A DNA stretch of 64,000 nt from Megascapheus bottae (lineage: Eukaryota; Chordata; Mammalia; Rodentia; Geomyidae). A program made the position numbers and the translations under genes. The notes below the pieces were generated by a model. That model had not been told where the DNA came from. It did no database searches and was given only the letters and a program-made list of their open reading frames with translations. Location of the stretch: positions 311,001 through 375,000 of the forward strand of contig JANJXV010000267.1 of the NCBI GenBank assembly GCA_024803745.1, read 5' to 3'. Below are positions 16,497 to 64,000 of the stretch, in pieces (positions within the stretch are counted from its first letter, which is position 1; each line of letters opens with the position of its first letter).

Positions 16497-17445
16497 TAGG
16501 GGGTAGCATTCAGGATGCCCACTCCCTCCACTCCTTTTTAACATAGTACTAGAATTCCTAGGCAGTGCAATAAGGCAAGAAGCAAGCATAAAGGGGATCC
16601 AAGTAGGGAAAGAGGAAATAAACCTATCCCTCTTTGCTGATGACATGATTTTGTATTTAAAGAATCCTATAGACTCTACTCCCAAGCTCCTTGAGCTGAT
16701 TCAAAGATTTGGAAGGATCTTCACCAACCAAACAACGGACAAATGCCTCATATCTAAAATATATCAACAACTCAAAAAATTGAATCACTCCAAAACTCAC
16801 CTCCAAAGTAACACCCATCCCATTAAAAATGGGCCAAAGACTTAAGAGAGTCTTCTCTGAAGAAAAAACAAAATTGCCTATAGACACATGAAGAAATGCT
16901 CAACATCTCTGGTCATAAAAGAAATGCAAATCAAAACAACTCCAAGATTCCACCTCACTCCAGTTAGAATGGCCAGGATCAGGCAAATGAATGACAACAG
17001 ATGCTGGAGGCGATGTGGCCAGGAGGGATCAGTACTACACTGTTGATGGGAGTGCAAACTCGTTCAACCACTATGGAAAGCAGTGCGGCAGTGCCTCAAA
17101 ACGCTAAACATACAACTCCCCTATGGCCCACCAATTCCACTTCTTGGCATTTACCCAACAATCCAGAAACAAGGGCATACTAAACCCACTAGCACAACAA
17201 TGTTCATTGCAGCACTATTCACCATAGCAAAGATATGGAACCAACCAAGATGTCCCTCAGTTGATGAGTGGATCAACAAGATGTGGTATTTGTACACAAT
17301 TGAATTCTATGCTGCTGTCAGAAAGAATGACATCGCCCCATTTGTTAGGAAATGGAAAGACTTAGAACAAATCATATTAAGTGAAGTAAGCCAGACTCAA
17401 AGGAACTTAGTCTCAGTGATTTCCCTCATTCGTCATAATCAGTAG
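16497..17445 (+). pseudogene. L1 ORF2 remnant of U0
   Basis: Part of the reverse transcriptase region with its FADD motif is fused to the C-terminal Cys-rich segment. The palm and most of the connector are missing. One cysteine of the C-terminal CX3C-X7-HX4C pattern reads differently because TGG became TGA ('ctgttgatgggag') near 17,045. It is not functional. Confidence 0.85.
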
Positions 17446-17860
17446 AAACCTTGGGCTCTACTAACAGAGATTGTCAATAGAGCAAAAGGCCATATATAAG
17501 GCCACATAATGTGAAGCTAATTGAAAGGACCTCCAGGATATTGACACAAAAGCCATATAATGAATAATTGTTGTCCTTAATGTACTATGTTTTCTCTCAT
17601 CTCGTTTGCTGTCCCTTGGTTATCCCATATTGGTATAGTATCTCACATTATCTTATATATTGAATTTATTTGTATTTGGATATTTGAAATTTGATAGGGA
17701 AGGGGGGAAAACCAAGACGGGTGGGGGGTGTGGGGTTGGAGGGAAATGGGTACCAAGACATGTGAAAGGGTATCAATGTATGTGAATTAATGCACCTTCT
17801 ATCTGGCAAATATCATCTAACCCTTTTACTAATTACAATAAAAAACTGAAAAAAAAGAAA
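16497..17860 (+). mobile_element. U0: truncated, internally deleted L1 at the array edge
   Basis: Starts abruptly inside ORF2 at the GCPL(S/P)PLLF motif (equivalent to about 23,005 in U1). It runs through the FADD reverse transcriptase motif ('tttgctgatgac') to about 16,717, then jumps about 930 bp to the equivalent of 24,148 ('gatcttcaccaacc'). From there it runs to the normal 3' end, G-rich 3'UTR and poly(A) at 17,860. The C-terminal frame 17,083-17,445 is open to the natural ORF2 stop. It keeps the AAG codon where U1-U3 have TAG, and the 'gggtaccaagacatg' 3'UTR form of U4-U6. Its 3' end joins the first spacer exactly as in all later units. This makes it a candidate partner for the exchange that founded the array. 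Confidence 0.9.
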
Positions 17861-18489
17861 GTTGTAGTGTGTAGGGAGGATGATGGGTTCAAATACATTT
17901 CTTCTTAGAAATTCACCTCATCTGGTTGCCCTGGATTTTCCTGGCCTTCTTCTTAGAGAAAGTTCTGTTATACTGGATTTGTGGCTTGGCAATGATATAG
18001 CATGTACATCTTCGAGTAAGACATCCACAACTTCCATGCCTGAGACTCGAGTTTCCTGACCTTTGGCAACAGCACAGCAACATCTTTCTTCCTCCTGAGC
18101 CACAGGCCAAGTGAGCTGGCTTGAGCTGGTTGTTAGTTACAGTGGCTTGGTTACCAGGGTTCCATATTCTGTTCCATTGTGAGGGAGGCAGGGTCACCTT
18201 TCAGGGCCCAATGACCAAAGATCCTTGCTCACAAAAGACCTTACCAAAGACATACTGGAGGCTGAATCTCTCCTCCAATATCACAATATACATGTGGATG
18301 TAGTAAACAGCACATCTTATTTGTCCAATCCCAATGTCTTCCACTAGGCCCAACTACCAGTCTGGTCTCAGGCTCAAGGAGCCTTTCTTAGGTAAGATCC
18401 AAACTTAAGGGTCAATATTGCCCTCATCCTTTACAAAACATTTGCTTCACAGTGCCTTCTCTGCCTGCATTTTGCCCCTTGTCGAATTT

Positions 18490-18680
18490 TTTTTGTTTTT
18501 GCTAGTCTTGGGACTTGACCTCAGAGTGTGAACATTGTTCTTGGGCTTTCTTTAGGCTTTAGCTGTCCCACAGAGCCACAGCACCACTTGCAGCGTTTTC
18601 TATGTATGTGGTAATGAGGAATCAAACCTGAGTCTTTTTGCTTGGTAGCCAGTACTTTACCACTAGGTCAAACACACAGG
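18490..18680 (-). repeat. ID-like SINE inside spacer
   Basis: Antisense: 'tgctagtcttgggacttgac', 'gtggtaatgaggaatcaaac' and 'ccagtactttaccactagg'. It is present at the same place in all spacers and in the single-copy homologue at 3,768-3,948. Confidence 0.75.
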
Positions 18681-18880
18681 GCATCTTGCACATATTTTTG
18701 ACGTCAATCTACTAGGATATTATTAGGTTTCTGTATCCTAATCATTTTTTTCCTGATGATTAGCTTTGCTGTCAAGTGTAAAAAATGCAAGAGGGAAAAA
18801 CACAGAAGAATTCGTGAAATTAAAAAAAGCATTAGACACAGTTAAGTGTTCATTCTTTGTAGGAGAAAAGATATTTGGAT

Positions 18881-18917
18881 ATGATGATTATGATGATGAT
18901 GATGATGATGATGATGA
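18881..18917 (+). repeat. (GAT)n microsatellite in spacer
   Basis: Length differs between units: about 12 triplets with an interruption here, 6 at 26,315 and 33,731, about 16 at 41,144, about 7 at 48,567, about 13 at 55,994 and about 5 at 63,439. The single-copy homologue has about 5 at 3,543. The equal length in U2 and U3 fits their recent common origin. Confidence 0.9.
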
Positions 18918-18938
18918 CTTTATAATTACTATGTCAGG

Positions 18939-19120
18939 GTTGAGAGTTTGGCATAGTGGTAGAGTGCTTGCCTAGCATCCATGAAGATCTGGGTTTGATT
19001 GCTCAGTATCACATAGATAGAAAATCTAGATGTGGCACTGTGGCTCAAGTGGCAGAGGGCTAGACTTGAGAAAACCCGAGGACAGTGCTCAGGCCCTGAA
19101 TTCAAGCCCCAAGACTGGCA
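18939..19120 (+). repeat. ID-like SINE inside spacer
   Basis: 'gtagagtgcttgcctagcat', 'tagatgtggcactgtggctc' and 'ttcaagccccaagactggca'. Shared by all spacers and by 3,336-3,530. Confidence 0.85.
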
Positions 19121-19245
19121 GAAAGATAAAAGAAAATAAAAATGCTTTTTACGAGCTAATTCACTCACAGCATTTGCTTCTGAAATCTTCGCTTCTGCAT
19201 CTTGTGAAATACCCCTTTCCCTCAACGTAGACAAGAAAAACAGAT

Positions 19246-19805
19246 CCATCCCATGGTCCACTGTGAGGCCACTGGTTGGGCTAAGAGCTAGTCGTTCAGC
19301 AACACATAAGTTTTATTCTAATACTTTCCAAACTTTGTACTCAAATATGCTACCTACTTACCAACTTAGGTCAGTTATCCTTATGCTATAACTTTTCTTC
19401 ATTACTACAATATTCTTACACTCCTACGTTAATCCTCTTGCACCTCCCCTGACGTCTCTCATTCTTTTTTTCTATCTCTGGACCTCTGCTCGTCTTTCAA
19501 CCCTTATACTGCACGGATCTACACTTGATGGCTGTTGAGCAGTATTGTATATGTAGGTGGTTAATTATTCTCTAGGCTCAGAGGGACTTAAAGACAATAG
19601 AGATTGGATTGAGAGGCTTATTGTTTTGGGTATAAATCGCTTATCAGTGGTTGTATAAGGCTGGTCGGTAAGTGCACAAAAAGAAAGAGTGATAATACCA
19701 ATCAAAACTTGTGAACATCTAGTGTCTGCCAGCTACAGAGGTCTAGGTTGGTTATATCTGAAAAACTATAATCGTATTTAGTAGTAATCTTGCTCCCATT
19801 TTCAA
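19246..19805 (+). promoter_or_regulatory. L1 5'UTR / putative internal promoter (U1)
   Basis: About 560 bp of non-coding sequence between the spacer and the ORF1 start. It is repeated in every unit and absent from the single-copy spacer homologue. An L1 5'UTR normally holds an internal RNA polymerase II promoter, but I can point to no specific factor site. It is AT-rich and not monomer-repeated. In U2-U6 a short open frame beginning MVNYSLGSEG lies within it; U1 lacks it because one codon reads TAA. No function is implied. Confidence 0.55.
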
Positions 19806-20989
19806 ATGGGCAGAACAAGAAACTCAAGAAAAATGTCAAATCAAGAAACAACATCCCCCACCCAATGTAAACAGACAATGGAACAGTCACTGGCAAACCT
19901 AGAGGAGAGTCTTCCAATTGCTACACAAATGCAATTGATAAACATCATTAATGAAAAATGTGAAAATATAAAGAAAGAGATAATGGAGGAAGCCATACCT
20001 GAACAAGAGGAAAGCAAGAACAAGGTGATAAGTGAAAAAGAAGAAGCCATAAAGGAGGCCATAATAAAGGTTTTTCATAGAAAGATGGATGAATTCAAAG
20101 AATCCACAAATAAAAACGTGACCAAACTCCAGCAAATGTCCAAAGAAAATAAAGCTACTGAGCTAACCACTCAAAAGGAAATCAAGGAGATAAAGAAATC
20201 CATACATGATCTAAAACAAGGGATGCAAGGCATCAAAAGTGAGCAATTAGAAGCAAGGGAGATGAAAAATAAAGTAGATAGCTTTGATAGCAGGTTAGAC
20301 ATTGCAGAGGAGAGAATTTCCGTGGCTGAAGATAATTTAGGTATTATAAAGAACAGAAAATGAGTCAATCCAAATCTAGGAAATATGAGAGAGCGTTTCA
20401 GGAGGTCCAAGATACAATTAGGAAGCCTAATTTAAGGCTAGTTGGTACTGAGGAGGGCGTGGAGAAAGAGGTCAATGGTATTGGAAATATACTTCAGGGA
20501 ATCATCTCAGAGAATTTCCCAAATATCCAGAAGGGCAGGCCCATCCAGATACGAGAAGCTTTTAGAACCCCAAACAGACCTGACCAGAAAAGAACATCCC
20601 ACCGCCACATTGTGATCCGAACTGGATCAATAGAAACGAAAGGAAAGATCCTAAAGGCAGCCAGGGAAAAGGGATCAGTAACCTACAAAGGCAAACCAAT
20701 CAGAATAACCCCAGATTTCTCAGCAGAGACCATGCAAGCACGAAGTGACTGGAAGCATATATGTCATGCACTTATATCAAATAACTACCAACCAAGAATA
20801 CTGTAGCCAGCTAAGCTCTCATTCATAACTGAGGGAAAAATAAAAACATTCCATTCCAGGGAAAAGCTGCAACAATATGTCGAAACAAAACCAACGCTAC
20901 AGAGAATTCTGAAAGATGCTCTATACATAGAAAACCAAAATAAATGCAATATAGGGAAAGAAATGGCACCTAAACAGCATACCATCTAA
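19806..20989 (+). pseudogene. L1 ORF1 (RNA-binding protein), disrupted, U1
   Basis: Residues 1-185 (19,806-20,363) are rich in Glu, Lys and Gln with heptad spacing, matching the ORF1p coiled coil. The frame then shifts at about 20,360 (ATGA overlap). The RNA-recognition and C-terminal domains follow in another frame to 20,803, with recognisable words NLRLVGTEEG, AREKGSVTYKGKPIRIT and NYQPRIL. TAG at 20,804-20,806 replaces the usual tyrosine before PAKLSF, and the last about 60 residues continue in frame to TAA at 20,987. ORF1p normally coats L1 RNA as a trimer. The frameshift and the stop are in every unit, so they predate the array. U1 private feature: VFHRKMDEF where the other units have VFQRKMDEF. 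Confidence 0.9.
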
Positions 20990-21037
20990 GGACCACAAGA
21001 ACTGTCAAGACACAGGCCCTACTAAAAGCTTTTAAAA

Positions 21038-24000
21038 ATGGTAGGAACTAATAAATATCTCTCAATCCTAACTCTCAATATCAATGGACTTAACTCTCCA
21101 ATTAAACGGCATAGGTTGTCTAGTTGGATCAAAAAGCAAGAGCCATCGTTCTGCTGACTTCAAGAGACACATCTTACCCCAAAACAATCATCTTTTGAAA
21201 GTGAGAGGTTGGAATAAACTCTATCAAGCTAACTGCCCCCATAAACCGGCTAGAGTTGCCATCCTCATATCAGATACAATAGACTTCAAACTAAAATTAG
21301 TAAGAAAAGACAAAGAAGGTTACTACATACTACTAAAGGGATCTTTCCTCCCGGAAGACATAACAATCCTAAATATTTACACACCCAATCCCGGAGCTCC
21401 AAACTTCATCAAGCAAACTTTACTTACACTGAAACCATACATAGATCGAAACACAGTGATTGTTGGTGAGTTTAACACACCACTCTCACCTATGGACAGA
21501 TCAACAAGGCAAAAACTCAACAGAGAAACCTTAGAACTGAACAACTATATAGACCAACTAGATCTAACAGACATCTGCAGAATATTCCACCCAGTAACAC
21601 CACAATATACGTTTTTCTCAGCAGCACATGGAACATTTTCCAAAATAGACCACATCTTAGGCCATAAAGCAAACCTGGACAGATTCAGAAACACTGAAAT
21701 TATTCCATGCACACTCTCAGACCATAAAGGCATCAAATTGGAGCTGAACACACATCTCCACCAAAGAAAACCCTGTAACTCATGGAGACTGAACCACACA
21801 TTGTTGAATCAAAAACAATGGGTAATCGAAGAGATCAGAACAGATATCCAACTGTTTATGAAATTTAACAATAAGGAGCACACAAATATCAACTCCTTAG
21901 GGACACAACAAAGGCAGTACTCAGAGGAAAATTTATAGCGCGGAGTGCCTACAACAGCAAGTTGGAAAAATGGCAAACCAACTAGTTAATGTCTCACCTT
22001 AACCTCCTGGAAAAAGAGCAACAAACCAACCCTAAACCCATTAGGAGAAAGCAAATTATTAAAATCAAAGCAGAATTAAATGATTTGGAATTTAAAAAAC
22101 TATAGAAAGTATCAACAAAACAAGGAGTTGGTTCTTGAAAGAATTAACAAAATTGACAAGCCCTTAGCAAATCTTACCAAAAAAAGAAGAGAGCATATCG
22201 AAATAAACAAAATCACAGATGAAAATGGTAATATAACGACAGAAATTACCAAGATCCAGAATATCATGAGGGAATACTTCTCAAACCTTTACGCCAACAA
22301 ATTTGAGAATCTAGAAGAAATGGATGAATTCCTAGACAATATTAACATACACACACTGAACCAAGAAGAGCTATCCCAACTCAACAGGCCTATTTCAAGC
22401 TCTGAAATAGAAATGGAAATTAGACAACTTCCACTTAAAAAGAGCCCAGGGCCAGATGGATTCACAGCTGAATTCTATAAGGTCTTCAAAGCAGAGCTCA
22501 CACCAATACTCCTCAAGATCTTCAACGAAATTGAAAATGAAGGTTCTTTACTAAACTGATTCTGTGAAGCCAGCATATCCCTCATCCCCAAACCAGACAG
22601 AGATTCATCAAAGAAAGAGATCTATAGACCCATTTCTTTGATGAACATCGATGCAAAACTTCTCAACAAAATACTGGCCAACCGTCTACAACAACTCATC
22701 AAAAAAAATATACACTATGATCAAACTGGATTCATCACAGTGAGGCAAAGCTGGTTCAACATACACAAATCAATTAATATAATTCAACACATCAACAGGA
22801 GCAGGGATAAAATCACATGATTGTCTCAATAGATGCGGAAAAGGCATTTGACAAGATCCAAAACCCCTTTATGTTAAAAGATGTGGAGAAACTAGGAATC
22901 CATGGAACATTTCTCAATGTAATAAAGGCTGTGTATGAGAAACCCACTGCTAGTATTATACTTAATGGTGAAAATCTAAAGCCATTCCCTCTAAAATCAG
23001 GAACGAGACAAGGATGCCCACTCTCTCCACTCCTTTTTAACTTAGTAGTAGAATTCCTAGGCAGTGCAATATGGCAAGAAGCAAGCATAAAGGGGATCCA
23101 AGTAGGGAAAGAGGAAATAAAACTATCCCTCTTTGCAGATGACATGATTCTGTATTTAAAGAATCCTATAGACTCTACTCCCAAGCTCCTTGAGCTGATT
23201 CAAAGCTTTGGAAGGGTAGCAGGCCATAAAATCAACCCGCACAAATCAACTGCCTTACTTTACGCCAACACTGAGAGGAACGAGGCAATAATCAGGAAAG
23301 AAAATCCTTTCACAATAGCCTCAAAGAAAATAAAGTACCTAGCAATTAGCTTAACTAAGAATGTAAAGGACCGTTTAGATGAAAACTTTAAAACCCTAAA
23401 AAAGGAAATTAAAGCAGAACTAAGGAAATGGAAAAACCTCCCATGCTCCTGGATTGGAAGAATCAACATTGTGAAAATGACAATCTTGCCAAGGGCTATC
23501 TACAAATTCAATGTAATACCCATCAACATCCCAATGTCATTCTTTAAAGACATAGAAGAGGCAATTCAAAATTTCATATGGAATCATAAAAGACCCCGTA
23601 TAGCAAAAACACTTCTTAGCAGAATGAACAGCGCTGGAGGAATTTCAATTCCAAACTTAAGGCTCTATTACAGAGCTATAATTCTCAAAACAGCTTGGTA
23701 CTGGCACAAGAACAGGCCTGAAGTCCAATGGAGTAGAACTGCGGACCCAGATATTAAACCACAGACCTATGGCCACCTAATCTTTGACCAGGGAGCCAAA
23801 AAAATAGAATGGAAGAAAGATAGCCTCTTCAACAAGTTGTGCTGGCAGAACTGGTTAAACACCTGCAGAAAACTAAAGTTGGATCCTTCTTTGTCACCTT
23901 GCAATAGAATTAACTCCAAATGGATCAAAGACCTGGAGGTAAAAGCTGACACACTGAAAAGTTTACAGGAAGGAATAGGAGATACACTAGGCCTCCTTGG

Positions 24001-24880
24001 TACAGGTCGAAACTTTCTTAATAAGGACCAAGAATCACAACAAATCAGAGAAAGGCAGGATAAGTGGGACTGCATTATACTGCAGAGCTTTTGTATGGCA
24101 ACGGATATAGCTAGTAAACTAATCAGGAAGCCTACAGAGTGGGAGAAGATCTTCACCACCCAAACAACGGAACAAGGCCTCATATCTAAAATATATCAAC
24201 AACTCAAAAAATTGAATCACTCCAAAACTAACCTCCAAAGTAACACCCATCCCATTACAAAATGGGCCAAAGACTTAAAGAGAGTCGTCTCTGAAGAAGA
24301 AACAAAAATGGCCTATAGACACATGAAGAAATGCTCAACATCTCTGGTCATAAATGAAATGCAAATCAAAACAAGTCTAAGATTCCACCTAACTCCAGTT
24401 AGAATGGCCAGGATCAGGAAAACGAATGACAACAGATGCTGGAGGGGATGTGGTCAGGAGGGATCACTACTACATTGTTGGTGGGAGTGCAAACTCGTTC
24501 AACCACTATGGAAAGCAGTGCGGCAGTGCCTCAAAACGCTAAACATACAACTCCCCTATGACCCAGCAATTCCAGTACTTGGCATTTACCCAACAATCCA
24601 GAAACAAGGGCATACTAAACCCACTAGCACAACAATGTTCATTGCAGCACTATTCACCATAGCATAGATATGGAACCAACCCAGATGTCCCTCAGTTGAT
24701 GAGTGGATCAACAAGTTGTGGTATTTGTACACAATGGAATTCTATGCTGCTGTCAGAAAGAATGACATCGCCCCATTTGTTAGGAAATGGAAAGACTTAG
24801 AACAAATCATATTAAGTGAAGTAAGCCAGACTCAAAGGAACTTAGGCTCAGTGGTTTCCCTCATTCGTCATAATCATTAG
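21038..24880 (+). pseudogene. L1 ORF2 (endonuclease-reverse transcriptase), disrupted, U1
   Basis: The start at 21,038 is chosen because it gives the typical N-terminal LTLNINGLNS motif. The frame hits TGA at 21,155-21,157 just before LQETHL, then shifts. The endonuclease continues in 21,084-21,938 with ILNIYTPN, VGEFNTPLSPMDRS (Glu at 21,468-21,470 in place of the catalytic Asp), SKIDHI and LSDHKG. Frameshifts follow at about 21,930 and 22,815, with TGA at 22,557-22,559. The reverse transcriptase spans 22,817-24,667 with [11 protein letters not shown] and FADD (23,132-23,143). A C-terminal CX3C-X7-HX4C motif lies at 24,437-24,490. A TAG at 24,665 (AAG in U4-U6) removes the last about 70 residues. 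Private change: GFITV where other units have GFITG. Confidence 0.9.
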
Positions 24881-25134
24881 AAACCTTGGGCTCTACTAGC
24901 AGAGATTGGCAATAGAGCAAAAGGCCATATATAAGGCCATATAATGTGAAGCTAATTGAAAGGACCTCCAGGATATTGACACAAAAGCCATATAATGAAT
25001 GATTGTTGTCCTTAATGTAGTATGTTGTCTCTCATCTCGCTTGCTGTCCCTTGGTTATCCCATATTGGTATAGTATCTCACTTTGTTATCTGATATATTG
25101 AATTTATTTGTATTTGGATATTTGAAATTTGATA

Positions 25135-25182
25135 GGGAAGGGGGGAAAACCAAGACGGGTGGGGGGTGTGGGGTTGGAGGGA
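25135..25182 (+). other. G-rich tract of L1 3'UTR
   Basis: Six runs of three or more guanines within about 48 bp, a G-quadruplex-capable pattern typical of rodent and human L1 3'UTRs. Equivalent tracts lie near 17,698-17,745, 32,551-32,598, 39,967-40,014, 47,408-47,455, 54,804-54,851 and 62,252-62,299. Confidence 0.8.
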
Positions 25183-25269
25183 AATGAGTGACATGTGAAA
25201 GGGTATCAATGTATGTGAATTAATGCACCTTCTATCTGGCAAATATCATCTAACCCTTTTACTAATTAC

Positions 25270-25293
25270 AATAAAAAAATGAAAAAAAAGAAA
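25270..25293 (+). terminator. L1 polyadenylation signal and A-rich tail (U1)
   Basis: AATAAA at 25,270-25,275 is followed by an A-rich tail that ends where the spacer word 'gttgtagtgtg' begins. Every unit ends the same way, with A-tract length varying by a few bases. Confidence 0.75.
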
Positions 25294-26661
25294 GTTGTAG
25301 TGTGTGGGGAGGATGATGGGGTCAAATACATTTCTTCTTAGAAATTTACCTCATCTGGTTGCCCTGGATTTTCCTGGCCTTCTTCTTAGAGAAAGTTCTG
25401 TTATACTGGATTTGTGGCTAGGCAATGATCTAGCATGTACATCTTCGAGTAAGACCTCCACAACTTCCATGCCTGAGACTCGAGTTTCCTGACCTTTGGC
25501 AACAGCACAGCAACATCTTTCTTCCTCCTGAGCCACAGGCCAAGTGAGCTGGCTTGAGCTGGTTGTTAGTTACAGTGGCATGGTTACCAGGGTTCCATAT
25601 TCTGTTCCATTGTGAGGGAGGCAGGGTCACCTTTCAGGGCCCAATGACCAAAGATCCTTGCTCACAAAAGACCTCACCAAAGACATACTGGAGGCTGAAT
25701 CTCTCCTCCAGTCTCACAATATACATGTGGATGTAGTATACAGCACACCTTATTTGTCCAATCCCAATGTCTTCCACTAGGCCCAACTACCAGTCTGGTC
25801 TCAGGCTCAAGGAGCCTTTCTTAGGTAAGATCCAAACTTAAGGGTCAATATTACCCTCATCCTTTACAAAACATTTGCTTCACAGTGCCTTCTCTGCCTG
25901 CATTTTGCCCCTTGTCGAATTTTTTTTGTTTTTGCTAGTCTTGGGAATTGACCTCAGAGTGTGAACATTGTTCTTGGGCTTTCTTTAGGCTTTAGCTGTC
26001 CCACCGAGCCACAGCACCACTTGCAGCGTTTTCTATGTATGTGGTAATGAGGAATCAAACCTGAGGCTTACTGCTTGGTAGCCAAGGACTCTCCCACTAG
26101 GTCAAACACACAGGGCATCTTGCACATATTTTGACGTCAATCTACTAGGATATTATTAGGTTTCTGTATCCTAATCAATTTTTTCCTGATGATTAGCTTT
26201 GCTGTCATGTGTAAAAAATGCAAGAGGGAAAAACACAGAAGAATTAGTGAAATTAAAAAAAAGCATTAGACACAGTTAAGTGTTCATTCTTTGTAGGAGA
26301 AAGGATATTTGGATATGATGATGATGATGATGACTTTATAATTACTATGTCAGTGTTGAGAGTTTGGCATAGTGGTAGAGTGCTTGCCTAGCATCCATGA
26401 AGTTCTGGGTTTGATTGCTCAGTACCACATAGATAGAAAATCTAGATGTGGCACTGTGGCTCAAGTGGCAGAGGGCTAGACTTGAGAAAACCCGAGGACA
26501 GTGCTCAGGCCCTGAATTCAAGCCCCAAGACTGGCAGAAAGATAAAAGAAAATAAAAATGCTTTTTACGAGCTAATTCACTCACAGCATTTGCTTCTGAA
26601 ATCTTCGCTTCTGCATCTTGTGAAATACCCCTTTCCCTCAACGTAGACAAGAAAAACAGAT
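25294..26661 (+). repeat. U2 spacer
   Basis: Same layout as the U1 spacer. U2 and U3 alone share 'ggctaggcaatgatctag' and 'aagacctccac', and both have a GAT tract of only six triplets (26,315-26,332). The minus-strand MAQEEER frame is open at 25,351-25,536. Confidence 0.9.
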
Positions 26662-27221
26662 CCATCCCATGGTCCACTGTGAGGCCACTGGTTGGGCTAA
26701 GAGCTAGTCGTGCAGCAACACATAAGTTTTATTCTAATACTTTCCAAACTTTGTACTCAAATATGCTACCTACTTACCAACTTATGTCAGTTATCCTTAT
26801 GCTATAACTTTTCTTCATTACTACAATATTCTTACACTCCTACGTTAATCCTCTTGCACCTCCCCTGACCTCTCTCGTTCTTTTTTTCTATCTCTGGACC
26901 TCTGCTCGTCTTTCAACCCTTATACTGCACGGATCTACACTTGATGGCTGTTGAGCAATATTGTATATGTAGGTGGTTAATTATTCTCTAGGCTCAGAGG
27001 GACATAAAGACAATAGAGATTGGATTGAGAGGCTTATTGTTTTGGGTATAAATCGCTTATCAGTGGTTGTATTAGGCTGGTCTGTAAGTGCACAAAAAGA
27101 AAGAGTGATAATACCAATCAAAACTTGTGAACATCTAGTGTCTGCCAGCGACAGAGGTCTAGGTTGGTTATATCTGAAAAACTATAATCGTATTTAGTAG
27201 TAATCGTGCTCCCATTTTCAA

Positions 27222-53700: not shown

Positions 53701-54550
53701 AGAATCACAACAAATCAGAGAAAGGCTGGATAAGTGGGACTGCACTAAACTGCAGAGCTTTTGTATGGCAACGGATATAGCTAGTAAACTAATCAGGAAG
53801 CCTACAGAGTGGGAGAAGATCTTCACCACCCAAACAACGGAACAAGGCCTCATATCTAAAATATATCAACAACTCAAAAAATTGAATCACTCCAAAACTA
53901 ACCTCCAAAGTAACACCCATCCCATTACAAAATGGGCCAAAGACTTAAAGAGAGTCTTCTCTGAAGAAGAAACAAAAATGGCCTATAGACACATGAAGAA
54001 ATGCTCAACATCTCTGGTCATAAAAGAAATGCAAATCAAAACAAGTCTAAGATTCCACCTAACTCCAGTTAGAATGGCCAGGATCAGGAAAACGAATGAC
54101 AACAGATGCTGGAGGGGATGTGGTCAGGAGGGATCACTACTACACTGTTGGTGGGAGTGCAAACTCGTTCAACCACTATGGAAAGCAGTGCGGCAGTGCC
54201 TCAAAACGCTAAACATACAACTCCCCTATGACCCAGCAATTCCAGTACTTGGCATTTACCCAACAATCCAGAAACAAGGGCATACTAAACCCACTAGCAT
54301 AACAATGTTCATTGCAGCACTATTCACCATAGCAAAGATATGGAACCAACCCAGATGTCCCTCAGTTGATGAGTGGATCAACAAGTTGTGGTATTTGTAC
54401 ACAATGGAATTCTATGCTGCTGTCAGAAAGAATGATATCGCCCAATTTGTTAGGAAATGGAAAGACTTAGAACAAATCATATTAAGTGAAGTAAGCCAGA
54501 CTCAAAGGAACTTAGGCTCAGTGGTTTCCCTCATTCGTCATAATCAGTAG
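50709..54550 (+). pseudogene. L1 ORF2, disrupted, U5
   Basis: In addition to the shared lesions it has a private TGA at 51,352-51,354 inside the endonuclease (AGA to TGA), one A missing near 51,853, and a net one-base loss near 52,618 that breaks the reverse transcriptase before RQGCPL. From 52,814 a 578-residue frame runs to the natural C-terminus. It starts just after FADD (52,802-52,813), so it lacks the catalytic core. Confidence 0.9.
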
Positions 54551-54968
54551 AAACCTTGGGCTCTACTAGCAGAGATTGCCAATAGAACAAAAGGCCATAT
54601 ATAAGGCCATATAATGTGAAGCTAATTGAAAGGACCTCCAGGATATTGACACAAAAGCCATATAATGAATGATTGTTGTCCTTAATGTACTATGTTGTCT
54701 CTCATCTCGCTTGCTGTCCCTTGGTTATCCCATATTGGTATAGTATCTCACTTTGTTATCTGATATATTGAATTTATTTGTATTTGGATATTTGAAATTT
54801 GATAGGGAAGGGGGGAAAACCAAGACAGGTGGGGGGTGTGGGGTTGGAGGGAAATGGGTACCAAGACATGTGAAAGGGTATCAATGTATGTGAATTAATG
54901 CACCTTCTATCTGGCAAATATCATCTAACCCTTTTACTAATTACAATAAAAAAATGAAAAAAAAGAAA

Positions 54969-55993
54969 GTTGTAGTGTGTGGGGAGGATGATGGGGTCAA
55001 ATACATGTCTTCTTAGAAATTTACCTCATCTGGTTGCCCTGGATTTTCCTGGCCTTCTTCTTAGAGAAAGTTCTGTTATACTGGATTTGTGGCTTGGCAA
55101 TGATCTAGCATGTACATCTTCGAGTAAGACATCCACAACTTCCATGCCTGAGACTCGAGTTTCCTGACCTTTGGCAACAGCACAGCAACATCGTTCTTCC
55201 TCCTGAGCCACAGGCCAAGTGAGCTGGTTGAGCTGGTTGTTAGTTACAGTGGCTTGGTTACCAGGGTTCCATAATCTGTTCCATTGTGAGGGAGGCAGGG
55301 TCACCTTTCAGGGCCCAATGACCAAAGATCCTTGCTCACAAAAGACCTCACCAAAGACATACTGGAGGCTGAATCTCTCCTCCAGTCTCACAATATACAT
55401 GTGGATGTAGTATACAGCACACCTTATTTGTCCAATCCCAATGTCTTCCACTAGGCCCAACTACCAGTCTGGTCTCAGGCTCAAGGAGCCTTTCTTAGGT
55501 AAGATCCAAACTTAAGGGTCAATATTGCCCTCATCCTTTACAAAACATTTGCTTCACAGTGCCTTCTCTGCCTGCATTTTGCACCTTGTCGAATTTTTTT
55601 TTTGTTTTTGCTAGTCTTGGGACTTGACCTCAGAGTGTGAACATTGTTCTTGGGCTTTCTTTAGGCTTTAGCTGTCCCACCGAGCCACAGCCCCACTTGC
55701 AGCGTTTTCTATTTATGTGGTAATGAGGAATCAAACCTGAGGCTTACTGCTTGGTAGCCAAGGACTCTCCCACTAGGTCAAACACACAGGGCATCTTGCA
55801 CATATTTTTGACGTCAATCTACTAGGATATTATTAGGTTTCTGTATCCTAATCAATTTTTTCCTGATGATTAGCTTTGCTGTCATGTGTAAAAAATGCAA
55901 GAGGGAAAAACACAGAAGAATTAGTGAAATTAAAAAAAAAAGGATTAGACACAGTTAAGTGTTCATTCTTTGTAGGAGAAAGGATATTTGGAT

Positions 55994-56033
<40 letters not shown>

Positions 56034-56361
56034 CTTTATAATTACTCTGTCAGGGTTGAGAGTTTGGCATAGTGGTAGAGTGCTTGCCTAGCATCCATGA
56101 AGATCTGGGTTTTATTGCTCAGTACCACATAGATAGAAAATCTAGATGTGGCACTGTGGCTCAAGTGGCAGAGGGCTAGACTTGAGAAAACCCGAGGACA
56201 GTGCTCAGGCCCTGAATTCAAGCCCCAAGACTGGCAGAAAGATAAAAGAAAATAAAAATGCTTTTTACGAGCTAATTCACTCACAGCATTTGCTTCTGTA
56301 ATCTTCGCTTCTGCATCTTGTGAAATACCCCTTTCCCTCAACGTAGACAAGAAAAACAGAT
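54969..56361 (+). repeat. U6 spacer
   Basis: GAT tract of about 13 triplets (55,994-56,033). A two-base loss near 55,226 ('gctggttgagctgg') extends the MAQEEER-type frame upstream (minus strand 55,026-55,304), so here it reads PVAQEEERCCCAVA without the methionine. Confidence 0.9.
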
Positions 56362-56921
56362 CCATCCCATGGTCCACTGTGAGGCCACTGGTTGGGCTAA
56401 GAGCTACTCGTGCAGCAACACATAAGTTTTATTCTAATACTTTCCAAACTTTGTACTCAAATATGCTACCTACTTACCAACTTATGTCAGTTATCCTTAT
56501 GCTATAACTTTTCTTCATTACTACAATATTCTTACACTCCTACGTTAATCCTCTTGCACCTCCCCTGACCTCTCTCATTCTTTTTTTCTATCTCTGGACC
56601 TCTGCTGGTCTTTCAACCCTTATACTGCACGGATCTACACTTGATGTCTGTTGAGCAATATTGTATATGTAGGTGGTTAATTATTCTCTAGGCTCAGAGG
56701 GACTTAAAGACAATAGAGATTGGATTGAGAGGCTTATTGTTTTGGGTATAAATCGCTTATCAGTGGTTGTATTAGGCTGGTCTGTAAGTGCACAAAAAGA
56801 AAGAGTGATAATACCAATCAAAACTTGTGAACATCTAGTGTCTGCCAGCTACAGAGGTCTAGGTTGGTTATATCTGAAAAACTATAATCGTATTTAGTAG
56901 TAATCTTGCTCCCATTTTCAA

Positions 56922-58105
56922 ATGGGCAGAACAAGAAACTCAAGAAAAATGTCAAATCAAGAAACAACATCCCCCACCCAATGTAAACAGACAATGGAAC
57001 AGTCACTGGCAAACCTAGAGGAGAGTCTTCCAATTGCTACACAAATGCAATTGATAAACATCATTAATGAAAAATGTGAAAATATAAAGAAAGAGATAAT
57101 GGAGGAAGCCATACCTGAACAAGAGGAAAGCAAAAACAAGGTGATAAGTGAAAAAGAAAAAGCCATAAAGGAGGCCATAATAAAGGTTTTTCAAAGAAAG
57201 ATGGATGAATTCAAAGAATCCACAAATAAAAACGTGACCAAACTCCAGCAAATGTCCAAAGAAAATAAAGCTACTGAGCTAACCACTCAAAAGGAAATCA
57301 AGGAGATAAAGAAATCCATACATGATCTAAAACAAGGGATGCAAGGCATCAAAAGTGAGCAATTAGAAGCAAGGGAGATGAAAAATAAAGTAGATAGCTT
57401 TGATAGCAGGTTAGACATTGCAGAGGAGAGAATTTCCGTGGCTGAAGATAATTTAGGTATTATAAAGAACAGAAAATGAGTCAATCCAAATCTAGGAAAT
57501 ATGAGAGAGCGCTTCAGGAGGCCCAAGATACAATTAGGAAGCCTAATTTAAGGCTAGTTGGTATTGAGGAGGGCGTGGAGAAAGAGGTCAATGGTATTGG
57601 AAATATACTTCAGGGAATCATCTCAGAGAATTTCCCAAATATCCAGAAGGGCAGGCCCATCCAGATACGAGAAGCTTTTAGAATCCCAAACAGACCTGAC
57701 CAGAAAAGAACATCCCACCGCCACATTGTGATCCGAACTGGATCAATAGAAACGAAAGGAAAGATCCTAAAGGCAGCCAGGGAAAAGGGATCAGTAACCT
57801 ACAAAGGCAAACCAATCAGAATAACCCCAGATTTCTCAGCAGAGACCATGCAAGCACGAAGTGACTGGAAGCATATATGTCATGCCCTTATATCAAATAA
57901 CTACCAACCAAGAATACTGTAGCCAGCTAAGCTCTCATTCATAACTGAGGGAAAAATAAAAACATTCCATTCCAGGGAAAAGCTGCAACAATATGTCGAA
58001 ACAAAACCAACACTACAGAGAATTCTCAAAGATGCTCTATACATAGAAAACCAAAATAAATGCAATATAGGGAAAGAAATGGCACCTAAACAGCATACCA
58101 TCTAA
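56922..58105 (+). pseudogene. L1 ORF1, disrupted, U6
   Basis: The shared frameshift is at about 57,476 and TAG at 57,920-57,922. Private substitutions include LQEAQDT, LVGIEEG and FRIPNRP. Confidence 0.9.
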
Positions 58106-58153
58106 GGACCACAAGAACTGTCAAGACACAGGCCCTACTAAAAGCTTTTAAAA

Positions 58154-61100
58154 ATGGTAGGAACTAATAAATATCTCTCAATCCTAACTCTCAATATCAA
58201 TGGACTTAACTCTCCAATTAAACGGCATAGGTTGTCTAGTTGGATCAAAAAGCAAGAGCCATCGTTCTGCTGACTTCAAGAGACACATCTTACCCAAAAA
58301 CAATCATCTTTTGAAAGTGAGAGGTTGGAATAAACTCTATCAAGCTAACTGCCCCCATAAACAGGCTAGAGTTGCCATCCTCATATCAGATACAATAGAA
58401 TTCAAACGAAAATTAGTAAGAAAAGACAAAGAAGGTTACTACATACTACTAAAGGGATCTTTCCTCCCGGAAGATATAACAATCCTAAATATTTACACAC
58501 CCAATCCCGGAGCTCCAAACTTCATCAAGCAAACTTTACTTACACTGAAACCATACATAGATCGAAACACAGTGATTGTTGGTGAGTTTAACACACCATT
58601 CTCACCTATGGACAGATCAACAAGGCAAAAACTCAACAGAGAAACCTTAGAACTGAACAACTATATAGACCAACTAGATCTAACAGACATCTGCAGAATA
58701 TTCCACCCAGTAACACCACAATATACGTTTTTCTCAGCAGCACATGGAACATTTTCCAAAATAGACCACATCTTAGGCCATAAAGCAAACCTGGACAGAT
58801 TCAGAAACACTGAAATTATTCCATGCACACTCTCAGACCATAAAGGCATCAAATTGGAGCTGAACACACATCTCCACCAAAGAAAACCCTGTAACTCATG
58901 GAGACTGAACCACACATTGTTGAATCAAAAACAATGGGTAATCGAAGAGATCAGAACAGATATCCAACTGTTTATGAAATTTAACAATAAGTAGCACACA
59001 AATATCAACTCCTTAGGGACACAACAAAGGCAGTACTCAGAGGAAAATTTATAGCGCGGAGTGCCTACAACAGCAAGTTGGAAAAATGGCAAACCAACTA
59101 GTTAATGTCTCACCTTAACCTCCTGGAAAAAGAGCAACAAACCAACCCTAAACCCATTAGGAGAAAGCAAATTATTAAAATCAAAGCAGAATTAAATGAT
59201 TTGGAATAAAAAAAAACTATAGAAAGAATCAACAAAACAAGGAGTTGGATCTTGAAAGAATTAACAAAATTGACAATCCCTTAGCAAATCTTACCAAAAA
59301 AAGAAGAGAGCATATCGAAATAAACAAAATCGCAGATGAAAATGGTAATATCACGACAGAAATTACCAAGATCCAGAATATCATGAGGGAATACTTCTCA
59401 AAACTTTACGCCAACAAATTTGAGAATCTAGAAGAAATGGATGAATTCCTAGACAATATTAACATACACACACTGAACCAAGAAGAGCTAACCCAACTCA
59501 ACAGGCCTATTTCAAGCTCTGAAATAGAAATGGAAATTAGACAACTTCCACTTAAAAAGAGCCCAGGCCAGATGGATTCACAGCTGAATTCTATAAGGTC
59601 TTCAAAGCAGAGTTCACACCAATACTCCTCAAGCTCTTCAACGAAATTGAAAATGAAGGTTCTTTACTAAACTGATTCTGTGACGCCAGTATATCCCTCA
59701 TCCCCAAACCAGACAGAGATTCATCAAAGAAAGAGATCTATAGACCCATTTCTTTGATGAACGTCGATGCAAAACTTCTCAACAAAATACTGGCCAACCG
59801 TCTACAACAACTCATCAAAAAAAATATACACTATGATCAAACTGGATTCATCACAGGGAGGCAAAGCTGGTTCAACATACACAAATCAATTAATATAATT
59901 CAACACATCAACAGGAGCAGGGATAAAATCACATGATTGTCTCAATAGATGCGGAAAAGGCATTTGACAAGATCCAAAACCCCTTTATGTTAAAAGATGT
60001 GGAGAAACTAGGAATCCATGGAACATTTCTCAATGTAATAAAGGCTGTGTATGAGAAACCCACTGCTAGTATTATACTTAATGGTGAAAATCTAAAGCCA
60101 TTCCCTCTAAAATCAGGAACGAGACAAGGATGCCCACTCTCTCCACTCCTTTTTAACATAGTACTAGAATTCCTAGGCAGTGCAATATGGCAAGAAGCAA
60201 GCATAAAGGGGATCCAAGTAGGGAAAGAGGAAATAAAACTATCCCTCTTTGCCGATGACATGATTCTGTATTTAAAGAATCCTATAGACTCTACTCCCAA
60301 GCTCCTTGAGCTGATTCAAAGCTTTGGAAGGGTAGCAGGCCATAAAATCAACCCTCACAAATCAACTGCCTTACTTTACGCCAACACTGAGAGGAACGAG
60401 GCAATAATCAGGAAAGAAAATCCTTTCACAATAGCCTCAAAGAAAATAAAGTACCTAGCAATTAGCTTAACTAAGAATGTAAAGGACCGTTTAGATGAAA
60501 ACATTAAAATCCTAAAAAAGGAAATTAAAGCAGAACTAAGGAAATGGAAAAACCTCCCATGCTCCTGGATTGGAAGAATCAACATTGTGAAAATGACAAT
60601 CTTGCCAAGGGCTATCTACAAATTCAATGTAATACCCATCAACATCCCAATGTCATTCTTTAAAGACATAGAAGAGGCAATTCAAAATTTCATATGGAAT
60701 AATAAAAGACCCCGTATAGCAAAAACACTTCTTAGCAGAAAAAACAGCGCTGGAGGAATTTCAATTCCAAACTTAAGGCTCTATTACAGAGCTATAATTC
60801 TCAAAACAGCTTGGTACTGGCACAAGAACAGGCCTGAAGTCCAATGGAGTAGAACTGCGGACCCAGATATTAAACCACAGACCTATGGCCACCTAATCTT
60901 TGACCAGGTAGCCAAAAAAATAGAATGGAAGAAAGATAGCCTCTTCAACAAGTTGTGCTGGCAGAACTGGTTAAACCCCTGCAGAAAACTAAAGTTGGAT
61001 CCTTCTTTGTCACCTTGCACTAGAATTAACTCCAAATGGATCAAAGACATGGAGGTAGAAGCTGACACACTGAAAAGTTTACAGGAAGGAATAGGAGATA

Positions 61101-61997
61101 CACTAGGCCTCCTTGGTACAGGTCGAAACTTTCTTAATAAGGACCAAGAATCACAACAAATCAGAGAAAGGCTGGATAAGTGGGACTGCATTAAACTGCA
61201 GAGCTTTTGTATGGCAACGGATATAGCAGGTAAACTAATCAGGAAGCCTACAGAGTGGGAGAAGATCTTCACCACCCAAACAACGGAACAAGGCCTCATA
61301 TCTAAAATATATCAACAACTCAAAAAATTGAATCACTCCAAAACTAACCTCCAAAGTAACACCCATCCCATTACAAAAATGGGCCAAAGACTTAAAGAGA
61401 TTCTTCTCTGAAGAAGAAACAAAAATGGCCTATAGACACATGAAGAAATGCTCAACATCTCTGGTCATAAAAGAAATGCAAATCAAAACAAGTCTAAGAT
61501 TCCACTTAACTCCAGTTAGAATGGCCAGGATCAGGAAAATGAATGACAACAGATGCTGGAGGGGATGTGGTCAGGAGGGATCACTACTACACTGTTGGTG
61601 GGAGTGCAAACTCGTTCAACCACTATGGAAAGCAGTGCGGCAGTGCCTCAAAACGCTAAACATACAACTCCCCTATGACCCAGCAATTCCAGTACTTGGC
61701 ATTTACCCAACAATCCAGAAACAAGGGCCTACTAAACCCACTAGCACAACAATGTTCATTGCAGCACTATTCACCATAGCAAAGATATGGAACCAACCCA
61801 GATGTCCCTCAGTTGATGAGTGGATCAACAAGTTGTGGTATTTGTACACAATGGAATTCTATGCTGCTGTCAGAAAGAATGACATCGCCCCATTTGTTAG
61901 GAAATGGAAAGACTTAGAACAAATCATATTAAGTGAAGTAAGCCAGACTCAAAGGAACTTAGGCTCAGTGGTTTCCCTCATTCGTCATAATCATTAG
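58154..61997 (+). pseudogene. L1 ORF2, disrupted, U6
   Basis: Private lesions are TAG at 58,992-58,994 (GAG to TAG), one G missing in 'gagcccaggccagatgg' near 59,567 that destroys the SPGPDG motif frame, and one A inserted near 61,377. The inserted A splits the C-terminus into 59,933-61,411 and 61,425-61,997. FADD is at 60,248-60,259. Confidence 0.9.
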
Positions 61998-62417
61998 AAA
62001 CCTTGGGTTCTACTAGCAGAGAATGGCAATAGAGCAAAAGGCCATATATAAGGCCATATAATGTGAAGCTAATTGAAAGGACCTCCAGGATATTGACACA
62101 AAAGCCATATAATGAATGATTGTTGTCCTTAATGTACTATGTTGTCTCTCATCTCGCTTGCTGTCCCTTGGTTATCCCATATTGGTATAGTATCTCACTT
62201 TGTTATCTGATATATTGAATTTATTTGTATTTGGATATTTGAAATTTGATAGGGAAGGGGGGAAAACCAAGACGGGTGGGGGGTGTGGGGTTGGAGGGAA
62301 ATGGGTACCAAGACATGTGAAGGGGTATCAATGTATGTGAATTAATGCACCTTCTATCTGGCAAATATCATCTAAGCCTTTTACTAATTACAATAAAAAA
62401 ATGAAAAAAAAAAGAAA

Positions 62418-63782
62418 GTTGTAGTGTGTGGGGAGGATGATGGGGGCAAATACATTTCTTCTTAGAAATTTACCTCATCTGGTTGCCCTGGATTTTCCTG
62501 GGCTTCTTCTTAGAGAAAGTTCTGTTATACTGGATTTGTGGCTTGGCAATGATCTAGCATGTACATCTTCGAGTAAGACATCCACATCTTCCATGCCTGA
62601 GACTGGAGTTTCCTGACCTTTGGCAACAGCACAGCAACATCTTTCTTCCTCCTGAGCCACAGGCCAAGTGAGCTGGCTTGAGCTGGTTGTTAGTTACAGT
62701 GGCTTGGTTACCAGGGTTCCATATTCTGTTCCATTGTGAGGAAGGCAGGGTCACCTTTCAGGGCCCAATGACCAAAGATCCTTGCTCACAAAAGACCTCA
62801 CCAAAGACATACTGGAGGCTGAATCTCTCCTCCAGTCTCACAATATACATGTGGATGTAGTATACAGCACACCTTATTTGTCCAATCCCAATGTCTTCCA
62901 CTAGGCCCAACAACTAGTCTGGTCTCAGGCTCAAGGAGCCTTTCTTAGGTAAGATCCAAACTTAAGGGTCAATATTGCCCTCATCCTTTACAAAACATTT
63001 TCTTCACAGTGCCTTCTCTGCCTGCATTTTGCCCCTTGTCGAATTTTTTTTGTTTTTGCTAGTCTTGGGACTTGACCTCAGAGTGTGAACATTGTTCTTG
63101 GGCTTTCTTTAGGCTTTAGCTGTCCCACCGAGCCACAGCACCACTTGCAGCGTTTTCTATGTATGTGGTAATGAGGAATCAAACCAGAGGCTTACTGCTT
63201 GATAGCCAAGGACTCTCCCACTAGGTCAAACACACAGGGCATCTTGCCCATATTTTTGACGTCAATCTACTAGGATATTATTAGGTTTCTGTATCCTAAT
63301 CAATTTTTTCCTGATGATTAGCTTTGCTGTCATGTGTAAAAATGCAAGAGGGAAAAACACAGAAGAATTAGTGAAATTAAAAAAAAGCATTAGACACAGT
63401 TAAGTGTTCATTCTTTGTAGGAGAAAGGATATTTGGATATGATGATGATGATGACTTTATAATTACTATGTCAGGGTTGAGAGTTTGGCACAGTGGTAGA
63501 GTGCTTGCCTAGCATCCATGAAGATCTGGGTTTGATTGCTCAGTACCACATAGATAGAAAATTTAGATGTGGCACTGTGGCTCAAGTGGCAGAGGGCTAG
63601 ACTTGAGAAAACCCGAGGACAGTGCCCAGGCCCTGAATTCAAGCCCCAAGACTGGCAGAAAGATAAAAGAAAATAAAAATGCTTTTTACGAGCTAATTCA
63701 CTCACAGTATTTGCTTCTGAAATCTTCGCTTCTGCATCTTGTGAAATACCACTTTCCCTCAACGTAGACAAGAAAAAGAGAT
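62418..63782 (+). repeat. U7 spacer
   Basis: Seventh copy of the spacer, with the shortest GAT tract (about five triplets, 63,439-63,453). It shows that the array continues beyond the window. The MAQEEER frame is open at 62,475-62,660 on the minus strand. Confidence 0.9.
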
Positions 63783-64000
63783 CCATCCCATGGTCCACTG
63801 TGAGGCCACTGGTTGGGCTAAGAGCTAGTCGTGCAGCAACACATAAGTTTTATTCTAATACTTTCCAAACTTTGTACTCAAATATGCTACCTACTTACCA
63901 ACTTATGTCAGTTATCCTTATGCTATAACTTTTCTTCATTACTACAATATTCTTACACTCCTACGTTAATCCTCTTGCACCTCCCCTGACCTCTCTCATT
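63783..64000 (+). mobile_element. U7 LINE-1, 5' end only
   Basis: The first 218 bp of the L1 5'UTR, cut by the window end. It matches 19,246-19,463 of U1. Confidence 0.85.

What the first reader, a model, noticed from the sequence alone, without database searches (positions are those of the whole stretch)
16497..64000. Head-to-tail macrosatellite of about 7.4 kb whose unit is a spacer plus a near full-length LINE-1
Six complete units and a seventh started copy repeat in the same orientation. Starts are at 17,861, 25,294, 32,710, 40,126, 47,571, 54,969 and 62,418 (periods 7,433, 7,416, 7,416, 7,445, 7,398, 7,449). L1s normally scatter; a regular array in which each unit carries the same L1 and the same 1.37-kb non-L1 spacer is unusual. 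The array runs off the right edge, so its true size is unknown.
Basis: seen in the sequence. Interest (0 to 1): 0.88.

Follow-up and report, generated by a model that had tools for sequence, protein, structure and literature searches.

The report
Giant LINE-1 and zinc-finger satellite
The repeated block is real and is one small piece of a huge nested satellite, in which stretches of about 7.4 kb carrying a dead LINE-1 alternate with 28.5-kb blocks carrying a broken KRAB zinc-finger gene, thousands of times over, so that several per cent of this genome assembly was built by copying two dead pieces of DNA.

Summary
In detail: six complete head-to-tail units (7,398-7,449 bp, 98.5-99.6% identical) and parts of two more. 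Each is a 1.38-kb non-L1 spacer plus a near full-length L1 that was dead before amplification: four stop codons are shared by 6 of 6 window units and by 19-20 of 20 units sampled on five contigs. The L1-spacer junction matches 19,206 places in 2.84 Gb (reversed-pattern control 0), about 142 Mb or 5%. The left flank belongs to a second repeated block of 28.5 kb with a broken KRAB zinc-finger gene. The array's left edge matches 2,560 places, the zinc-finger exon 4,792. Together they form a higher-order repeat, roughly 7.6-9.8% of the assembly (haplotype duplication not excluded). Unit 2 is a hybrid of units 3 and 1, as unequal crossing-over would make; a misjoin is unlikely but not excluded. New variant of a known kind; function untested, probably none. 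Host probably a heteromyid rodent (recalled).

The parts
1..16508 (+). Right-hand 16.5 kb of repeated segment B (28.5 kb; whole copy C267:298973-327510). Not unique flank: other copies on C52, C149 and at C267:281001-293196
   Evidence: C52:3575001-3598428 matches window 13369 back to C267:301001 at about 98%; C149 matches 11392-16543 at 97.6%; C267:281001-293401 matches 4276-16716 at 98.3%
3214..4500 (-). Old inverted relative of the spacer inside segment B, about 81-84% identical, without L1 at either end (resembles the unoccupied site)
16509..17855 (+). Left-edge L1 3' fragment (starts at L1 position 23011 of unit 1) with a ~0.93-kb internal deletion at ~16,712
   Evidence: the flank/L1 edge junction matches 2,560 places in the genome
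17856..19240 (+). Spacer, copy 1 (non-L1; contains a SINE-like stretch and an ATG microsatellite of variable length)
19241..25293 (+). L1, copy 1: 5'UTR 19241-19805, ORF1 from 19806, ORF2 about 21039-24880 (both broken), 3'UTR and A-rich tail 24881-25293
   Evidence: L1 copy on C5 whose similarity to the unit starts at 19241
17861..25293 (+). Unit 1 (7,433 bp)
25294..32709 (+). Unit 2 (7,416 bp), hybrid of unit 3 (5' part) and unit 1 (3' part)
29794..30378 (+). Crossover zone of unit 2, inside L1 ORF2
   Evidence: same bases in contig C494
32710..40125 (+). Unit 3 (7,416 bp)
40126..47570 (+). Unit 4 (7,445 bp)
47571..54968 (+). Unit 5 (7,398 bp)
54969..62417 (+). Unit 6 (7,449 bp)
62418..64000 (+). 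Unit 7, cut by the window edge; array continues to at least C267:415000

Best explanation
The window holds one array of a two-level satellite. Level 1 (A) is a 7.42-kb unit made of a 1.38-kb piece of older host sequence plus one near full-length, already dead L1, repeated head to tail. Level 2 is A-arrays alternating with a 28.5-kb segment B that carries a broken KRAB zinc-finger gene and sits where one L1 lacks about 1.6 kb of ORF2. SHOWN: the anatomy, the shared stop codons in the units read, the genome-wide pattern counts and the hybrid unit 2. INFERRED: the unit arose when two L1s in the same orientation flanked the 1.38-kb stretch and recombined with each other (or by one tandem duplication). 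It then grew and shrank by unequal crossing-over and gene conversion, while whole A+B blocks were copied to other sites. No retrotransposition of the unit is needed or seen. The sequence most likely has no encoded function; it probably behaves as heterochromatin-forming satellite DNA (untested).
For: (1) Head-to-tail units at 98.5-99.6% identity. (2) Shared stops at 20361, 20804, 21936 and 22557 in 6 of 6 window units, and 20/20, 20/20, 20/20 and 19/20 in 20 units from five contigs: one dead L1 was amplified. (3) Pattern counts, all with zero matches of the reversed control: L1/spacer junction 19,206; spacer/5'UTR junction 17,417; 5'UTR interior 17,263; array left edge 2,560; zinc-finger exon 4,792. 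(4) Segment B recurs at about 98% in the copies read; KRAB box E=2.7e-25 and C2H2 fingers E=2.8e-28. (5) Unit 2: of 93 sites where units 1 and 3 differ, the first 60 are unit-3-like, six are mixed, and 26 of the last 27 are unit-1-like, with 1 private site: the expected product of one unequal crossover. (6) Adjacent units differ by 1.15% on average (14 pairs), non-adjacent units of one stretch by 1.60% (36 pairs). (7) A minimal array with one spacer lies at C267:293197-298972.
Against: Units of one stretch are no more alike than units of different stretches (1.473% against 1.482%, permutation 0.46), so homogenisation within arrays is weak and much of the spread must be block copying whose mechanism is not seen. 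If the first L1 had inserted into a copy of the segment-B site, the DNA left of the array should match the sequence beyond window 4500; the only matches found there look like SINEs, one of them in the expected inverted sense (16335-16485 to 5320-5469, 62%). The candidate target-site duplication at the left edge is weak (13 of 17 bases, 4% of shuffles as good). The zinc-finger exon count (4,792) is almost twice the left-edge count (2,560), so many B copies may lack this edge or have diverged from it. Not all arrays fit: C149 ends inside a spacer beside a 23-bp satellite. Unit 2 could also be a misjoin, though C494 agrees with it. The assembly may hold both haplotypes of some loci. Chromatin state and chromosomal place were not testable.
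Confidence: 0.8

Rival explanations
1. Serial retrotransposition: L1s inserted again and again at the same spot, or L1 transcripts carried the spacer along (3' transduction), making the array by reverse transcription.
For: Each L1 copy read ends in an A-rich tail next to the spacer (for units 0-1), and L1 transduction of flanking DNA is discussed in PMC6947457 (passages).
Against: The units share the same internal stops and the same two junctions. Transduced spacers would end in their own poly(A); the spacer instead runs straight into the L1 5'UTR. The L1 frames are broken.
Confidence: 0.03
2. Assembly artefact: the array length or unit 2 is produced by mis-joined reads.
For: Unit 2 has one private substitution and looks as a misjoin product would look. 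C494 and C267 may be two haplotypes kept side by side.
Against: Units differ by 30-113 substitutions. C494 repeats the end of unit 2 and units 3-5 with its own differences, none of them across the unit-2 switch zone. Dozens of copies lie within single contigs of 5-6 Mb.
Confidence: 0.07
3. A rival for the founding step only: one L1, and a non-homologous tandem duplication (or a circular DNA that re-inserted) joined the spacer to the L1 5'UTR at the 5-bp microhomology CAGAT, without a second L1.
For: CAGAT is shared by the L1 5'UTR of a copy on C5 and by the unoccupied spacer relative. The minimal array is a circularly permuted unit lacking about 1.6 kb, as a linearised circle would be.
Against: Both spacer ends fall at L1 boundaries (A-rich 3' end on one side, 5'UTR on the other), which two L1 insertions explain without coincidence. 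Any slice of a tandem array is circularly permuted too. Whether the C5 copy extends further 5' than the unit's L1 was not determined.
Confidence: 0.35
4. The A+B blocks carry out a function, such as a centromeric or heterochromatic role or a zinc-finger protein that binds the neighbouring L1s.
For: Many KRAB zinc-finger proteins recognise transposable elements (PMC10547255, abstract start in the listing); KRAB and fingers recur thousands of times in the genome of the L1 arrays. The KRAB exon differs at only 1 of 126 positions between two copies.
Against: In 5 of 5 zinc-finger copies read, the finger frame is closed by stops in the linker part. The finger exon differs at 29 of 1,497 positions between two copies against 336 of 23,255 for the whole segment. 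No chromatin or expression data were available.
Confidence: 0.08

Closest known systems
Macrosatellites (DXZ4, D4Z4)
   Same: Head-to-tail units of several kb; array length varies between people (DXZ4: PMC3081327, abstract start in listing)
   Different: Those are single or few loci (D4Z4: 8 to over 100 units of 3.3 kb, PMC13138017, abstract start in listing); here about 19,000 junctions, each unit read carrying a near full-length L1
Tandem composite repeats of T2T ape genomes
   Same: Tandem repeat units described as composites (PMC11168930, passages; Hoyt et al. 2022 recalled, not held)
   Different: The passages report 13 new composite repeats on ape sex chromosomes; their make-up lies in supplements I did not see. 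That none has this scale or nesting is my inference
MMSAT4 and KRAB zinc-finger gene clusters of mouse
   Same: A so-called satellite that consists of KRAB zinc-finger genes and related units in clusters; 715 units (PMC5363842, abstract and section 5)
   Different: Here a 28.5-kb block with one broken gene is copied together with L1 macrosatellite arrays; 4,792 exon matches
LINE-1-derived satellites: common cetacean satellite, PROsat of Phodopus
   Same: Satellite DNA derived from LINE-1 (PMC6947457, table passage)
   Different: Recalled as shorter L1 pieces; here 5'UTR, ORF1, ORF2 and 3'UTR are present plus a 1.38-kb non-L1 spacer
LINE-1 arrays of mouse (170 kb at Dlk1-Dio3)
   Same: Large stretch dominated by L1; none of the ten full-length L1s found there is intact (PMC5848613, abstract and passages)
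   Different: Those hold 157 L1 repeats of different lineages and families; here one L1 is copied as a tandem unit
Complex heterochromatin repeats of voles (MS3, MS4)
   Same: Complex repeats used as probes for rodent sex-chromosome heterochromatin (PMC3913780, PMC5793180, passages)
   Different: Unit composition not seen (only a reference title); sequence comparison not done

Membership tests
Macrosatellite | Unit longer than about 1 kb, repeated head to tail | tested here: met
   7,398-7,449 bp, six units in one orientation
Macrosatellite | High identity between units | tested here: met
   98.47-99.60%
Macrosatellite | One or a few chromosomal loci | tested here: not met
   2,560 array-edge and 19,206 unit-junction matches, on many contigs
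Macrosatellite | Copy number varies between individuals | not testable with these tools
   One assembly; one pair of near-identical contigs compared over 30 kb, same units
Tandem composite repeat / TE-derived satellite | Tandem unit containing transposable-element sequence and other sequence | tested here: met
   L1 plus non-L1 spacer with SINE-like stretch
Tandem composite repeat / TE-derived satellite | Amplified as DNA, not by new insertions | tested here: met
   Three stops shared by 20 of 20 and one by 19 of 20 units examined; hybrid unit 2
LINE-1 | ORF2 with endonuclease and reverse transcriptase of the L1 type | tested here: met
   E=5.5e-76 (EN part) and 2.5e-253 (RT and C-terminal part) to human ORF2p
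LINE-1 | Able to retrotranspose | tested here: not met
   By sequence only: ORF1 and ORF2 broken by shared stops and frameshifts
Higher-order repeat | Larger block containing the tandem array itself repeated in order | tested here: met
   B-A-B-A at C267:281001-415000 and A-B-A on C52 around 3568178-3605000
KRAB zinc-finger gene | KRAB box and C2H2 fingers | tested here: met
   PF01352 E=2.7e-25; PF00096 E=2.8e-28
KRAB zinc-finger gene | Open frame that could make the protein | tested here: not met
   0 of 5 copies read have an open finger frame through the linker; the other matches of 4,792 were not read
Centromeric satellite | Location at centromeres, CENP-A binding | not testable with these tools
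   Contigs are unnamed; no chromatin data

The most novel reading that the evidence does not exclude
The A+B higher-order repeat is a main building material of this species' heterochromatin and may be one of the largest satellites, by unit size and total length, known in a mammal. A dead L1 and a dead KRAB zinc-finger gene were turned together into a repeat of about 34 kb to 90 kb or more that keeps spreading by block copying and unequal exchange, with the L1 tracts as recombination substrate. If that is right, L1 elements can build megabase satellites without any retrotransposition.
Probability: 0.35. Interest if true: 0.85.

Novelty: new variant of a known kind. Interest (0 to 1): 0.75.

Why it matters
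It shows a route by which a single dead L1 insertion becomes satellite DNA that makes up about 5% of a mammalian assembly, and it links an L1 macrosatellite with amplification of a broken KRAB zinc-finger gene in one higher-order repeat. The hybrid unit 2 looks like a caught unequal crossover, so rates of exchange, gene conversion and block copying could be measured on thousands of units. It also warns that L1 and zinc-finger copy numbers in such a genome can reflect satellite growth and not retrotransposition or selection for zinc-finger diversity.

Tried and rejected
Rejected or left open: (a) 'spacer' as the L1 5'UTR: an L1 copy on C5 has the sequence from 19241 on but no spacer, and a spacer relative occurs without L1 in segment B. 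(b) Sequence 19246-19800 as 5' flank of the L1 insertion: no match to the sequence next to the spacer relative (score 107 against shuffled maximum 121.5). (c) Left-edge target-site duplication: weak. (d) A split in divergence along the left-edge fragment, which would place the founding crossover: differences are roughly even along it. (e) A transversion bias special to the array: ratios are low in the array (72:109) but also in segment B (160:176) and the spacer relative (90:100), so it is not clearly array-specific; left unexplained. (f) Rfam: 0 families in window 1-26000. (g) Pfam on exon-like frames of the left flank and spacer: 0 families for 8 of 8 sequences; a RasGEF-like look of window 4630-4780 is recalled only, and the solved-structure search found nothing for window 4467-4775. 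(h) Ten literature searches listed no title or abstract start that describes this repeat; the library holds open-licence papers only.


Full report
CHECK OF THE OBSERVATION. The window (64,000 bases; C267:311001-375000 of a 2.84-Gb, 2,786-contig assembly) contains the array as described. Self-comparison gives offsets of 7,416 and near it. The six complete units are 7433, 7416, 7416, 7445, 7398 and 7449 bp, and pairwise identity is 98.47-99.60%. L1 sequence begins at about 16,509-16,511. The first L1 fragment (to 17,855) lacks about 0.93 kb inside, and its compared part is more divergent (96.2-96.5% identity). The L1 is genuine: three ORF2 pieces match solved human LINE-1 ORF2p at E=5.5e-76, 1.4e-49 and 2.5e-253.

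ANATOMY OF THE UNIT. Spacer 17,856-19,240; L1 5'UTR 19,241-19,805; ORF1 from 19,806; ORF2 about 21,039-24,880; 3'UTR with A-rich tail to 25,293. ORF1 and ORF2 are broken. Stops at 20361, 20804, 21936 and 22557 are present in 6 of 6 window units, and a fifth (24665) in 3 of 6. In 20 units from five contigs the counts are 20, 20, 20, 19 and 10 of 20. Those 20 came from stretches chosen among the 40 best hits to this window, so they are biased towards similar copies. Three units of C494 were dropped as near-duplicates, and the C267 unit with an LTR-flanked insertion was left out by a length filter. One dead L1 was therefore amplified. The spacer is an old host sequence: its inverted relative at 3,214-4,500 (81-84% identical) has no L1 at either end, and the similarity stops at the A-rich L1 end on one side and at the L1 5'UTR on the other. 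An L1 copy on C5 matches the unit from 19,241 onward (58 of the first 60 bases) and has no spacer (12 of 60 before it). CAGAT is shared at this boundary, so a single tandem duplication through microhomology remains possible.

GENOME-WIDE SCALE. The search machine answered only some requests. A 30-base pattern across the L1/spacer junction, up to two mismatches, matches 9,414 + 9,792 = 19,206 places; the reversed control pattern matches none. The spacer/5'UTR junction gives 17,417 and the 5'UTR interior 17,263. The last two agree, so at this stringency the 5'UTR probably seldom occurs outside the unit. Among the 100 places listed, three lie on very large contigs: two on C3 (68 Mb), 6,871 bp apart, and one on C5 (68 Mb). 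At 7.42 kb each, 19,206 units would be 142.5 Mb or 5.0% of the assembly. The lists show only the first 100 places, apparently in contig order: they lie on C38 (one, at its start), C52 and C54, on C52 and C54. I infer that exact copies are in blocks and rare on the largest contigs (contig numbers seem to fall with length). On C52, 42 of 77 successive listed places are 7,340-7,500 bp apart.

THE SECOND LEVEL. The array's left-edge junction itself matches 1,212 + 1,348 = 2,560 places. The DNA left of the array is a repeated segment, B. C52:3575001-3598428 matches window 13,369 back to C267:301001 at about 98%, C149 matches 11,392-16,543 at 97.6%, and C267:281001-293401 matches 4,276-16,716 at 98.3%. 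On C267 the order is B, a minimal array with one spacer (293197-298972), B (298973-327510, 28,538 bp), then the window's array. The two C267 arrays, and a 32-bp piece on C149, begin at L1 position 23011; the two right ends read (C52 and C267) lie at about 21386 and 21370 (unit 1 coordinates). So B sits where about 1.6 kb of ORF2 is missing. C149 is an exception: after those 32 bp it jumps to L1 position 21496, and its short array ends in the spacer beside a 23-bp satellite of at least 15 kb. Segment B holds a KRAB exon (PF01352, E=2.7e-25) and a C2H2 finger tract (PF00096, E=2.8e-28), about 9.2 and 5 kb left of the window. A 39-base pattern from its finger exon, up to three mismatches, matches 4,792 places. 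In 5 of 5 copies read, the finger frame is closed by stops in the linker part. Between C52 and C267 the finger exon differs at 29 of 1,497 positions, the KRAB exon at 1 of 126 and the whole segment at 336 of 23,255, so I see no constraint on the fingers; the KRAB exon is too short to judge. The two B counts (2,560 and 4,792) were made with different patterns and mismatch limits; they give 73-137 Mb for B and 7.6-9.8% of the assembly for A+B. This assumes that each match stands for a whole unit or segment, and it is inflated if both haplotypes are kept: C494 and C267 agree at 99.94% over 30 kb.

HOW IT WORKS. Unit 2 records what looks like unequal crossing-over. Units 1 and 3 differ at 93 gap-free sites; unit 2 follows unit 3 at the first 60, is mixed at six (window 29,871-30,378) and follows unit 1 at 26 of the last 27, with one private base. 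Order 1 - hybrid(3,1) - 3 is what one unequal exchange yields. A misjoin would look the same, but contig C494 has no difference from the window between 26,543 and 37,286. Adjacent units differ by 1.15% (14 pairs), non-adjacent ones in one stretch by 1.60% (36 pairs), yet stretches as a whole are not more uniform inside than between (1.473% against 1.482%, 50 and 140 pairs, permutation 0.46). I read this as local unequal exchange plus copying of whole blocks between sites; the block-copying mechanism is not seen. C220 supports block copying: in the opposite orientation it repeats window 16,588-19,287 at 99.74%, including the left-edge deletion. The founding step is inferred: two L1s flanking 1.38 kb that recombined (favoured) or one tandem duplication. 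Against the first, the DNA left of the array shows only SINE-like matches to the sequence beyond the spacer relative.

COMPARISON. By structure it is a macrosatellite and a TE-derived composite satellite. It fails 'one or a few loci', so I call it a higher-order composite satellite. Nearest relatives in print that I saw: tandem composite repeats of ape sex chromosomes (PMC11168930, passages), the mouse MMSAT4 'satellite' that consists of KRAB zinc-finger genes (PMC5363842, abstract and section 5), LINE-1-derived satellites of cetaceans and Phodopus (PMC6947457, passages) and the mouse LINE-1 arrays of many different L1s (PMC5848613, abstract and passages). Ten searches listed nothing like this repeat among titles and abstract starts, in a library of open-licence papers only. 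SINEs of the kind in the left flank look to me like those of heteromyid rodents (recalled), and the contig sizes might fit a kangaroo-rat assembly (a contig N50 of 9.6 Mb for Dipodomys spectabilis is given in PMC9348616, passages); both are leads, not tests.

Noticed in passing
C267:385606-392482 (right of the window; L007): A 6,877-bp insertion inside one L1 unit with 378-bp direct terminal repeats at 99.47% identity and a 6-bp target duplication: a young LTR element, probably an endogenous retrovirus. Observed only.
   Followed up: partly
C149:721597-737000 (L015-L016): The short array on C149 ends inside a spacer and abuts a satellite of 23-bp period that runs to the end of the fetched stretch (15.4 kb).
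   Followed up: no
window 17861-64000 and segment B: Transitions do not exceed transversions: private array substitutions 72:109, B copies 160:176, spacer relative 90:100, C494 against C267 5:6; lower than I would expect for a mammal (recalled). Units 1-3 are the most extreme (unit 1 against 3: 24:69). One older L1 comparison gives 79:70.
   Followed up: partly
window 4233-6935: Exon-like open stretches in segment B with a RasGEF/RalGDS-like look to my eye (recalled); no Pfam match, so at best a decayed gene.
   Followed up: partly
C3:21601800-21610563 (L035): On a 68-Mb contig two 5'UTR copies lie 6,871 bp apart; the one read has a spacer with a deletion of about 45 bp and 94-97% identity: perhaps a separate, more divergent array in otherwise satellite-poor DNA.
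   Followed up: partly
window 18881-18917, 41144-41192, 55994-56033: An ATG microsatellite in the spacer varies in length between units and between C267 and C494 (6 bases), usable as a unit marker.
   Followed up: no
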